A stretch of DNA of 64,000 nt, taken from NCBI RefSeq assembly GCF_000309385.1, contig NZ_JH976537.1:5232410-5296409 (forward strand). The letters run 5' to 3'. This DNA comes from Nodosilinea nodulosa PCC 7104 (GTDB lineage Bacteria > Cyanobacteriota > Cyanobacteriia > Phormidesmidales > Phormidesmidaceae). A program made the translations under genes and the position numbers. Position 1 is the first letter of the stretch; each line of letters begins with the position of its first letter. The notes under the pieces are model-generated. The model was not told the DNA's origin. It was given only the letters and a program-made list of their open reading frames with translations, and ran no database searches. Below are positions 656-47,804 of this stretch, piece by piece.

Positions 656-875
656 CTCAATTCTTCTAGTTCCATGCCGCGAAACGCTCGTCTGTGGGTT
701 ACGGCCAGTGCCCAGTTCGCCTATCTCCGAAATGGTTTGGTTGTGGCCTAACCCAAGCTACAGTTCTCAATTCTTCTAGTTCTATGCCGCGAAATGCTCG
801 TCTGTGGGTTACGGCCAGTGCCCGGTTCGCTTATCTCCGAAATAGTTTGATTACGGCCTAACCCACGCTACAGTT
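656..875. repeat. tandem duplication of a 110-bp unit
   Basis: Bases 656-765 and 766-875 are two head-to-tail copies with a period of exactly 110 bp and only scattered substitutions. Each unit contains an inverted pair, TGGGTTACGGCC near its middle and GGCCTAACCCA near its end. The unit therefore looks like a foldable interspersed element that has been duplicated in tandem. A partial extra copy of the GGGTTACGGCCA motif lies upstream at about 602-613. No convincing coding sequence runs through it. Confidence 0.9.
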
Positions 876-20541: not shown

Positions 20542-20623
20542 TATAGCTATGGCCAGTCTGGTTAAGACAGATCTCCTATGAACGCTCAAACGTTTGAACG
20601 TTACCAACGTGACTATGGCTATA
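20542..20623 (+). repeat. MITE-like palindromic element, copy A (shortened)
   Basis: An 82-bp copy starting with TATAGCTATGGCC and ending with GACTATGGCTATA. The central palindrome AACGCTCAAACGTTTGAACGTT is present with one mismatch. Compared with copy C, 22 bp of the right arm are missing. The same element recurs at 24780-24884 (inverted) and 47295-47398. Confidence 0.88.
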
Positions 20624-24046: not shown

Positions 24047-24508
24047 GTGAACGCAGCAGAACAGGCCAACAGTATTGAATTTGCCAGCAAAATAGCTGCC
24101 GTGGTGGGCCTCTTCAAAGCAGAGCTGCCCGATTTGCGGGCCGACCTCAAGCCCTGGGCCAACGATCCCGACACTCGCGATCTGGTCGATCCAGACTCTA
24201 TTGATGTGGGGTTTCATTTTCCGGGGGTGAGTCGGCTATTTCAATGCCGCAGTCTGCTGGTGCAAATTCGTCTGTACACCGATCCAGAAATCGGCGATGG
24301 CCACAGCTCCCTGTCGAGGGCAAAAACCCGAGTGATTGGGTTGGACTTAGCCGGGTTTGACCATCGAGGCAGGCGCTGGAGCCTTTCCACCATCGACAAC
24401 TGGAGTTTTTCGGGTGAAGTCACCCCCGATCCCACCGCTCGAGAGCGGCTGCGTCGGTGCTGTCGCCAGGTGTTTGCCCTGTTTAATGCGCCCTCGCAGG
24501 TGGGCTAG
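24047..24508 (+). CDS. conserved-looking hypothetical protein
   Basis: 153 residues from a GTG start; no clear Shine-Dalgarno. It appears soluble, with 'DPDSIDVGFHFPGVSRLFQC' and 'RSLLVQIRLYTDPEIGDG' and a helical C-terminus 'RERLRRCCRQVFALF'. No domain is recognised. The next 440 bp are repeats. Confidence 0.7.
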   Translation: MNAAEQANSIEFASKIAAVVGLFKAELPDLRADLKPWANDPDTRDLVDPDSIDVGFHFPGVSRLFQCRSLLVQIRLYTDPEIGDGHSSLSRAKTRVIGLDLAGFDHRGRRWSLSTIDNWSFSGEVTPDPTARERLRRCCRQVFALFNAPSQVG

Positions 24509-24530
24509 TCGACTGCGGCACAAGTATGGG

Positions 24531-24616
24531 GACTATTGCCAATCGCGAGGGAGCAGGGGAGCGAGGGAGCCAAGCGAGCTGGAATGGTCGACATATTTCC
24601 GCCTTCGAGCATTAGG
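24531..24616 (+). repeat. 86-bp interspersed repeat, copy 1
   Basis: Aligns without gaps to 47181-47266 at roughly three quarters identity. Conserved cores are GACTATT, AGGGAGCCAAGCG and GCCTTCGAG. In both places it lies just after a gene's stop codon and upstream of a palindromic MITE-like copy. Confidence 0.82.
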
Positions 24617-24779: not shown

Positions 24780-24884
24780 TATAGCCATAGGCACGTTGGT
24801 TAGGACATTCAGAAACCCTATGAACGTTCAAACGTTTGAACGTTCACTAGGAGACAGGCCTTAATCAGACTGCCTACAGCTATA
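24780..24884 (-). repeat. MITE-like palindromic element, copy B
   Basis: A 105-bp copy in the opposite orientation to copies A and C. It starts TATAGCCATAGGCACG and ends CTACAGCTATA, with the central palindrome around AACGTTCAAACGTTTGAACG intact. The two arms are imperfect inverted repeats of one another over the whole length. The rest of the 24509-24949 spacer contains nothing else I can name. Confidence 0.9.
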
Positions 24885-33727: not shown

Positions 33728-33871
33728 TGGACGCCGGAGTACAGACTGCTCGATGCTAACGCAATCACGTTAAGGCTTTATTTCCGTCGTTGGGCCAGGC
33801 TGCCCTGAACCAAGTGACTATTGATGAACCAGCGGTGGGGCTTTCTTCACCCAGTGCTATTATGCTTGGGC

Positions 33872-34023
33872 GCGATTGGTTCTGGTGGGGATCAGCCACC
33901 AGAGGTAACGGGGAAAGTGCAGTGTAAGGCTGCCGCTGTCCCGCAGCTGTAAGGCGATGTTGGCGTTCAGCCCATGGATGCACCGAACGCTAACATCGCC
34001 AAGCCAGAATGCCCGCCGATCGC
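33872..34023 (+). promoter_or_regulatory. cobalamin (B12) riboswitch
   Basis: The closing stem GCGATTGG (33872-33879) pairs with CCGATCGC (34016-34023), one G-U included. Inside are the conserved AACGGGGAAAG, then CTGTCCCGCAGCTGTAAGG, and finally GCCAGAATGCCCGCC, which match the cobalamin riboswitch core order. An internal long hairpin (GCGATGTTGGCGTTC with GAACGCTAACATCGC) is also plain. It ends 33 nt before the hupE start, so it most likely acts by hiding the ribosome-binding site when cobalamin is bound. Confidence 0.92.
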
Positions 34024-34055
34024 AATGTTGCTCTTTCTTCGTCTGCGAGGTACGG

Positions 34056-45868: not shown

Positions 45869-47158
45869 ATGGCGACTCCCCTCGATGCCAGCGATCGCGA
45901 CCGGATTTGTGCCGTGGCCCAGCGGCTCTACCAGGCGGCCAGGCCAATCAAAATTCTCAAGGCGATCGCCTGGCCCGACCGGGTTAAAGCCGACTTTTTT
46001 GCCCAGGGCGCTAGAGAGCTGCCCCAGGTCGAGTACCCAAGCTTCGATCCGCAGCCGGTGCTGGAGTTAGTCCACGCCGCCCGACGGGATATTTTAGGTG
46101 GCTCGGTGATTGACGCCTGGCTGGAGCGCCAGGCCTACGCCCTGGAAACCGGGGCCAGAATGCTGGCGGTCGTCGGCACCCCCGCCTTCTTTGAGCACTC
46201 CCGCCGCGCCTACGGCGAACCCACCACCCCCATGCGGTTCGACACCGAAACCACGCTGGATTTAGCCTGGCAGATCCAGTCCGTCATTCAGCAGCTTGAC
46301 CACATCAACATTGATATTTCGCCGCCGGAGTTTCACGATGCCAATTTTGTGGCCCAAGAGATTGAGGTCGCGGTCAAACAGCACTTCGGTGACGCCGCCC
46401 CCGAAATTCAGGTGGTGGATGCCCTGTCGGCCAACGCCCTGGCTTCGGCCAGCCGCATTCGCCTGCGCCGCGATGCCCGCTTTACCGATCGCGATGCGGC
46501 CCAGCTGCTGCACCACGAGGCCCATATCCATGTCGCCACTGCTCTCAATGGCAAGGCCCAACGCCTGCTGCCCATTCTCTCGGCGGGGCACCCCGGCACC
46601 ACCCGCACCCAGGAAGGGTTAGCCGTATTCGCTGAAATCCTCAGCGGTACTATTGAGCTAAATCGCTTTCAGCGCCTGGCCGATCGCGTCTTTGCAATCC
46701 AAATGGCGGTGGAAGGCGCTGACTTTTTGCAGGTGTACCAATATTTTCTGGAGCGCACCGACAGGCCCGATCAGTCCTTTGAGAGCGCCCGGCGGGTGTT
46801 TCGCGGCGGGGTGATGACCGGCGGGGCACCGTTTACTAAGGATGTGGTGTATCTGTACGGGCTGCTGCAGGTGAGCACCACCATTCGGGCTATGTTTAGC
46901 GCCGGGCGGGCCGACTGCCTGCTGCTGCTGTTTTGCGGCAAGCTGGATATCTACGACCTGCCCGCCCTGGCGGAACTGACGGCGGCGGGGCTATGCCAGC
47001 TGCCCCAGTTCGTGCCGCCCTGGGTGAGCGACCCCCGCTACCTGCTGGCCCTGCTGACCTACTCGACCTTTATGAACCAGATCGAGTCGGAGCGAGCCAC
47101 CGCCGCCGTTAAAAAGCTGCTCGAAAATACCCCTGTTGTAGATGTGTCAGGCCGCTAG
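45869..47158 (+). CDS. DUF1704 / QEGLA-motif putative metallopeptidase
   Basis: 429 residues. The family is annotated as flavohemoglobin-expression-modulating QEGLA protein because of the 'TRTQEGLAVFAEI' motif, seen here near residue 250. Upstream is 'LLHHEAHIHVATALNG', an HExxxH zinc-binding arrangement near residue 215. The eukaryotic tubulin carboxypeptidase MATCAP belongs to the same DUF1704 family and uses this motif, so a metallopeptidase or carboxypeptidase role is a reasonable inference. No partner gene is evident. The bacterial substrate is unknown. Confidence 0.9.
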   Translation: MATPLDASDRDRICAVAQRLYQAARPIKILKAIAWPDRVKADFFAQGARELPQVEYPSFDPQPVLELVHAARRDILGGSVIDAWLERQAYALETGARMLAVVGTPAFFEHSRRAYGEPTTPMRFDTETTLDLAWQIQSVIQQLDHINIDISPPEFHDANFVAQEIEVAVKQHFGDAAPEIQVVDALSANALASASRIRLRRDARFTDRDAAQLLHHEAHIHVATALNGKAQRLLPILSAGHPGTTRTQEGLAVFAEILSGTIELNRFQRLADRVFAIQMAVEGADFLQVYQYFLERTDRPDQSFESARRVFRGGVMTGGAPFTKDVVYLYGLLQVSTTIRAMFSAGRADCLLLLFCGKLDIYDLPALAELTAAGLCQLPQFVPPWVSDPRYLLALLTYSTFMNQIESERATAAVKKLLENTPVVDVSGR

Positions 47159-47180
47159 TAATCTGAGGCGGAAGCTTAGG

Positions 47181-47266
47181 GACTATTTCTGCGAGCTAGG
47201 GGGCGGGGGAGCCAGGGAGCCAAGCGTGCCAAAACGGTGAAGATATTTCAGCCTTCGAGTACTAGC
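47181..47266 (+). repeat. 86-bp interspersed repeat, copy 2
   Basis: Ungapped match to 24531-24616. It begins 23 bp after the DUF1704 stop codon and lies 28 bp before palindromic copy C. Confidence 0.82.
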
Positions 47267-47294: not shown

Positions 47295-47398
47295 TATAGC
47301 TGTGGCCAGTTTGGTTAAGACAGGTCTCCTATGAACGTTCAAACGTTTGAACGTTCATAGGGTTTCTGGATGTCCTAACCAACGGGACTATGGCTATA
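47295..47398 (+). repeat. MITE-like palindromic element, copy C
   Basis: The best-preserved copy, 104 bp. It begins TATAGCTGTGGCC and ends GGGACTATGGCTATA. Its centre (47328-47361) is a perfect 34-bp palindrome, CCTATGAACGTTCAAAC and its complement. The arms are imperfect inverted repeats along the whole length. The right end covers the stop codon of the thioesterase gene. Confidence 0.93.
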
Positions 47399-47804
47399 CC
47401 TGCAAATAGGGTGTAAATAAGGTCTTTTCTTCAGCGGTTAAACGCTTGGGGCGCATCGTCTTGGCATCTACAAATAACCCTTTTTGCCTACCCTCGGCGG
47501 CAAGCAACTGGTCGCCATTGTGAAACCGGAACTGCATCACGGCGGAGGCATGGCGCAGCTCAGATAGCCACATCTGAACCTGGACGCGATCGCCCAAATA
47601 CAGCGGCAGCTTATAGATAATGTTTGTCTCCACCAAAATTGGCGCGGTGCCCTGCTGGAGCACTTCATGAACGGGCATACCGACAGCCTCCAGCAGCTTT
47701 ATACGCCCAATCTCCATCCATTGAATATAAACCGAGTTATTCACATGACCAGCAAAATCAATGTGATAGGTATAAACCTCAAGATCGAAGAGAAGTTTGG
47801 GCAT
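47394..47804 (-). CDS. acyl-CoA thioesterase (4HBT hot-dog fold)
   Basis: 136 residues with the 4-hydroxybenzoyl-CoA thioesterase pattern: 'DFAGHVNNSVYIQWMEIGR', with the catalytic Asp, then 'TNIIYKLPLYLGDRVQVQMW' and 'HASAVMQFRFHN'. The last Val codon and the TAG stop lie in the terminal repeat of palindromic copy C. It is divergent from a TetR regulator across about 100 bp with two palindromic sites, so it is probably that regulator's target. Substrate unknown. Confidence 0.92.
   Translation of the reverse strand: MPKLLFDLEVYTYHIDFAGHVNNSVYIQWMEIGRIKLLEAVGMPVHEVLQQGTAPILVETNIIYKLPLYLGDRVQVQMWLSELRHASAVMQFRFHNGDQLLAAEGRQKGLFVDAKTMRPKRLTAEEKTLFTPYLQV

What the first reader, a model, noticed from the sequence alone, without database searches (positions are those of the whole stretch)
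47295..47398. A roughly 105-bp palindromic MITE-like element in three copies
Copies at 20542-20623, 24780-24884 (inverted) and 47295-47398 share ends of the form TATAGC...GGCTATA and a central AACGTTCAAACGTTTGAACG core. Copy C has a perfect 34-bp palindrome at its centre, and its arms are inverted repeats along the whole length. All are at gene ends. It has no coding capacity, so it must be mobilised by something else or spread as a REP-like sequence. I do not recognise it as a named family.
Basis: seen in the sequence. Interest (0 to 1): 0.62.

Follow-up and report, generated by a model that had tools for sequence, protein, structure and literature searches.

The report
IS630-type MITE family, about 115 copies
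The repeat is a 100-base non-coding "parasite of a parasite": a miniature transposon with about 115 copies in this cyanobacterial genome that appears to jump into TA sites using the enzyme of a known kind of insertion sequence (IS630), of which this genome itself seems to hold only a broken remnant.

Summary
The three copies are part of a family with about 115 cores in the 6.9-Mb genome, with sharp ends TATAGC…GCTATA. Two empty sites show a 100-bp element, TAGC…GCTA, plus a TA duplication. (1) Seven identical IS982-family copies carry the element at one site, and three otherwise identical copies lack it (1068 versus 966 bp). (2) Removing copy C restores the missing last four codons of a 4HBT-type thioesterase gene; nine relatives have the longer form. 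In the genome, copy C's own end supplies the TAG stop. The matching autonomous element is a 953–967-bp, two-ORF IS630-family insertion sequence, found intact in sister species, whose inverted repeats match both MITE ends at 21–24 of 28 bases. In the window's own genome I found only a 56-aa relic of that transposase, so the MITE looks orphaned there. None of 84 placed copies lies inside a called gene, and divergent promoter regions are avoided. The central palindrome carries more compensated paired changes than expected. This is a new family of a well-known kind; the points of interest are the missing parent, the IS982 vehicle and the possibly self-correcting core.

The parts
47295..47398 (+). 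MITE copy C with its TA target duplication (element proper 47297-47396, 100 bp)
   Evidence: joining the flanks over one TA restores the 140-codon thioesterase frame seen in relatives
47295..47322 (+). left terminal inverted repeat including TA: TATAGCTGTGGCCAGTTTGGTTAAGACA
   Evidence: family consensus form matches the IS630 end TATAGCTATAGCCAGTCTGATTAGGACA at 24/28
47371..47398 (-). right terminal inverted repeat including TA: TATAGCCATAGTCCCGTTGGTTAGGACA
   Evidence: family consensus form matches the other IS630 end TATAGCTATAGCCACTTAGGTTAGGACG at 23/28
47328..47361 (.). 34-bp perfect palindrome, central core
   Evidence: compensated paired changes among genomic copies
47394..47804 (-). 4HBT-type thioesterase gene (136 aa) whose TAG stop lies in the MITE end; four codons shorter than its orthologues (140-141 aa)
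24780..24884 (-). MITE copy B (105 bp, inverted relative to copy C)
20542..20623 (+). MITE copy A (82 bp, internal deletion of 22 bp that removes part of the right arm)

Best explanation
It is a non-autonomous miniature inverted-repeat transposable element of the IS630 (Tc1/mariner-like) group: about 26-bp inverted repeats (TAGC-N12-GGTTARGACA) around an unrelated palindromic core, 100 bp in all, inserted at TA with duplication of the TA. Shown: the ends, the TA duplication, the copy number, empty sites, and an IS630-family element with matching ends in sister species. Inferred: an IS630 transposase supplied in trans (cut and paste by the DDE enzyme) moves it; in this genome the supplier has been lost or visits on other DNA, leaving a 3' relic. 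A second route is shown: one copy inserted into an IS982-family element 28 bp before its transposase gene and has been carried to further sites by that element. Insertions survive almost only between genes, mostly with a gene's 3' end on at least one side, where the element's end can serve as a stop codon.
For: 115 cores and 40 scored full-length copies in the genome. Ends sharp to the base in 32 aligned copies. IS982-family copies of 966 bp (three, empty) and 1068 bp (seven, loaded) with identical insertion-sequence DNA over the stretch compared; six of seven loaded copies have their own 4-5 bp duplications. Copy C absent at the end of the orthologous gene in nine relatives; joining the flanks gives the orthologous C-terminus AAEV. 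IS630 elements of 961 bp with HTH_Tnp_IS630 and DDE_3 proteins and matching ends in two sister genomes and Tildeniella torsiva. End pattern TATAGC-N12-GGTTARGACA in 44 of 117 genomes, reversed control 0. 0 of 84 placed copies inside a called gene against 68% of TA positions.
Against: No intact matching transposase was found in this genome: the DDE_3 elements whose ends could be defined have other ends, the best relative of the parent is a 73%-identical 56-aa relic plus one distant 29-32% protein, and no pair of exact family ends spans transposase length except pairs of MITEs (listing cut at 100 of 104). G024, with copies identical to the consensus, also shows none, though it is a draft. The MITE interior does not derive from the parent found. 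No movement was observed directly.
Confidence: 0.93

Rival explanations
1. A REP-like or other structural repeat spread by recombination or by a REP-associated transposase, kept for a role in transcript ends or DNA topology.
For: Strong stem-loops, intergenic and often downstream of genes, compensated changes in the core.
Against: TA duplication and exact empty sites, terminal repeats shared with an IS630 element, insertion into an IS982-family copy, and sharp outer ends 104 bp apart rather than a 20-40 bp unit.
Confidence: 0.03
2. A MITE that was spread by a non-IS630 transposase, or by a more distant IS630 enzyme still present in the genome.
For: The genome has 27 DDE_3 (IS630-type) matches, those with definable ends having other ends, yet the MITE copy in the IS982-family element points to recent activity.
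Against: None of those elements examined has ends like the MITE, while sister species hold elements that do.
Confidence: 0.12
3. A decayed MITE, no longer able to move in this genome, whose copies are mostly old.
For: Most copies in the genome differ by several percent from the consensus and no intact parent was found.
Against: Loaded and empty IS982-family copies are otherwise identical, and sister genome G024 holds several 100%-identical copies.
Confidence: 0.2

Closest known systems
IS630-family insertion sequences (two-ORF subgroup, 953-967 bp, ends TATAGC…GTTAGGACR)
   Same: Closely matching terminal inverted repeats that begin and end with TA; widespread in cyanobacteria including Tildeniella, Nostoc, Cylindrospermum, Microcoleus.
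   Different: The MITE has no coding sequence and its interior is unrelated to the parent beyond about 28 bp at each end.
Nezha MITE of Anabaena (Zhou et al. 2008, cited in PMC10969869)
   Same: A cyanobacterial MITE.
   Different: Sequence not compared; the paper is not in the library searched.
MITEs of Anabaena sp. 90 (PMC3542288)
   Same: 147 copies, 77-541 bp, 132 of them intergenic, and likewise no resident insertion sequence with matching ends.
   Different: There no insertion sequence with matching ends was reported; here one is found in sister species. Sequences not compared.
ISY100 (IS630/Tc1-mariner) of Synechocystis (PMC2170065)
   Different: From own knowledge its ends differ; not compared here.

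Membership tests
MITE | short, no coding capacity | tested here: met
   100 bp, too short for a transposase gene; only chance frames overlap it
MITE | terminal inverted repeats | tested here: met
   26-28 bp ends, imperfect
MITE | target-site duplication | tested here: met
   TA, from two independent empty sites
MITE | many copies at unrelated sites | tested here: met
   about 115 cores; 86 separate places read
MITE | shares ends with an autonomous element | tested here: met
   IS630 elements in sister species, 21-24 of 28 bases; 20,000 shuffles reach at most 18
IS630-mobilised element | TA target | tested here: met
IS630-mobilised element | intact transposase with matching ends in the same genome | tested here: not met
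   only a 56-aa relic with one end on contig 2; this is usual but not required for a MITE
IS630-mobilised element | movement by that transposase | not testable with these tools
   needs a transposition or excision assay
REP sequence | 20-40 bp palindromic unit (PMC3733652) without target duplication | tested here: not met
   100-bp element with TA duplication

The most novel reading that the evidence does not exclude
The 34-bp core is actively kept symmetrical: paired changes arise together through hairpin template switching (quasi-palindrome correction), or are selected because the stem-loop does something, such as protecting transcript ends or aiding transposition. Among 57 copies, 11 complementary double changes were seen against 2.6 expected, in about seven distinct classes, and no excess in the outer arms.
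Probability: 0.3. Interest if true: 0.5.

Novelty: new member of a known kind. Interest (0 to 1): 0.36.

Why it matters
It names the likely mobiliser of an abundant cyanobacterial repeat and gives the end pattern (TATAGC-N12-GGTTARGACA) by which sister families can be found across the class. It also gives a complete genome in which a MITE with signs of recent movement seems to have outlived its enzyme, an internal case of a MITE using another insertion sequence as a vehicle, and a large natural set of copies of a palindrome for testing whether hairpin correction shapes repeats.

Tried and rejected
A first end pattern with one N too many found nothing; my error, corrected. Plasmid and phage collections: no match. 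Resident IS630 elements as parents: rejected on their ends, though for some of them no ends could be defined. The seven copies with shared flanks were first considered as possible parents; they are an IS982-family element that carries the MITE. Rfam: no match on the element. Promoter scan of copy C: none; terminator scan: one weak site, not above the shuffles. Copy B flanks in relatives: orthologues align only from about 65 bp beyond the insertion point, so no second window empty site was obtained; copy A flanks were not searched. REP reading rejected.

Full report
What is there. Copy C (47295-47398) and copy B (24780-24884, inverted) are full length; copy A (20542-20623) has lost 22 bp beside the core. 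A search of the window's own genome (6.9 Mb, two contigs) scored 40 full-length copies at 90-100% identity out of 162 candidates; a core pattern allowing three mismatches gives 115 forward places and none for the reversed control. Aligned copies share sharp ends, TATAGC at the left and GCTATA at the right, with unrelated flanks. In the set I read, 86 separate places hold the element, 66 of them near full length, including a few that belong to sister families.

Target duplication and empty sites. Seven copies had identical flanks. They lie inside an IS982-family insertion sequence (NCBIfam IS982, E 5e-79) between its left end and its transposase gene. Three further copies of the same insertion sequence in this genome are identical over the stretch compared but lack the MITE. 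Two of those three share flanks, so they may be one insertion in a duplicated segment. The two forms measure 966 and 1068 bp, a difference of 102 bp, and the empty site reads GCTGA-TA-TCACG. This gives a 100-bp element TAGC…GCTA and a duplicated TA. Six of the seven loaded copies are flanked by their own 4-5 bp repeats, so the IS982-family element has carried the MITE to new places by its own transposition; the seventh (L113) has non-matching flanks. An independent case is copy C. The 4HBT-type thioesterase gene beside it (47394-47804, minus strand) is 136 codons long and stops at a TAG inside the MITE end. With the flanks joined over one TA the frame runs to 140 codons ending AAEV; eight relatives have 140 codons ending in the same or closely similar residues and a ninth 141. 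In a simple codon-usage gene call, five of the copies listed overlap the end of a gene by exactly five bases in the same way.

The mobiliser. The pattern TATAGC-N12-GGTTARGACA occurs in 44 of 117 related genomes, with no match for the reversed control. In one of them (L155) the two ends lie 959 bp apart around an IS630-type transposase. A search with that protein brought in many relatives; two in the same genus, L194 and L196, are 961-bp elements with ends TATAGCTATAGCCAGTCTGATTAGGACA (one base different in L196) and TATAGCTATAGCCACTTAGGTTAGGACG/A. The MITE ends match these at 21-24 of 28 bases, against a maximum of 18 in 20,000 shuffles. The first frame matches HTH_Tnp_IS630 and the second DDE_3 and NCBIfam IS630; the frames overlap near a run of eight A, which suggests frameshifting (inference). 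Named holders include Tildeniella torsiva (91% identical), Leptolyngbya sp. FACHB-60, Phormidium tenue and several Nostocales; their ends give the consensus TATAGCTATAGCCA-N4-GGTTAGGACG, with position 28 about half G and half A. Beyond about 28 bp at each end the MITE does not resemble the parent.

The missing parent. In the window's genome the IS630-type elements whose ends I could define have other ends, such as TAAGCTGTT or TATCAAGTCC, and none of those examined carries the MITE's ends. The only close relative of the parent transposase is a 56-codon 3' piece, 73% identical, followed by one family end. No pair of exact family ends lies at transposase distance except pairs of MITEs (listing cut at 100 of 104). 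Sister genome G024 holds copies identical to the consensus but no matching transposase; being a draft of about 620 contigs, it may simply lack it in the assembly. So the freshest copies are in genomes without a detectable supplier. I read this as loss of the supplier or supply from DNA not in the assembly; cross-mobilisation by a resident enzyme is not excluded.

Where it sits. Of 86 places, two had unknown context and none of the other 84 lay inside a called gene, while 68% of TA dinucleotides in the larger regions do (binomial p about 1e-42). Between divergent genes there were 13 of 84 against 28% expected (p 0.008); convergent gaps were not significantly enriched (30 of 84, p 0.23). The gene calls are approximate and the control regions were chosen around MITEs. 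The pattern fits removal by selection of insertions in genes and promoters; a target preference is not excluded.

The core. Among 57 near full-length copies, the core palindrome had 96 single changes and 12 double changes, 11 of them complementary, against 2.6 expected in shuffles (0 of 2000 reach it). The outer arms had four complementary doubles against 3.5 expected. The 11 fall into about seven classes, so relatedness explains part but probably not all; the shuffles ignore relatedness, and some copies were found through the core itself. Adjacent double pairs and transversion pairs fit template switching at a hairpin, a known process (PMC7202029, PMC8604942, abstracts only), but selection on a stem-loop would look similar.

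Comparison with what is known. It meets the defining features of a MITE tested here and shares its ends with the IS630 family. Anabaena sp. 90 has 147 MITEs without resident matching insertion sequences (PMC3542288), so an orphan MITE is not new in cyanobacteria. ISY100, an IS630-family element, needs only its transposase in vitro (PMC2170065, abstract), which makes supply in trans plausible. I found no published name for this family in the library searched; ISfinder could not be searched. Verdict: a real family of a known kind, apparently undescribed, with its likely mobiliser identified in sister species.

Noticed in passing
window 47154-47265 and 24504-24615: A second dispersed repeat of about 110 bp, 73% identical between these two places, with at least 20 further copies in this genome and many in G017 and G024; the 47154 copy begins at a gene's stop codon.
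   Followed up: partly
L015-L023 (IS982-family element), L089, L103, L106: IS982-family insertion sequence present with and without the MITE; seven loaded and three empty copies, two of the empty ones with identical flanks.
   Followed up: yes
L109 / L016 flanks: One loaded IS982-family copy has inserted into a sister-family MITE: a MITE inside an insertion sequence inside a MITE.
   Followed up: partly
L141 2674-2770: Sister MITE family with ends TATAGCAGCCGACGG…GGTTAGGACA and a different core; others with the same end pattern occur in many genomes.
   Followed up: partly
G011, G019, G021 contig ends: Many short matches to the last 30-34 codons of the IS630 transposase, many at contig ends, suggesting longer deletion derivatives of the parent.
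   Followed up: no
window 656-875: Tandem duplication of 110 bp, 92% identical.
   Followed up: no
window 33860-34034: Cobalamin riboswitch (Rfam RF00174).
   Followed up: no
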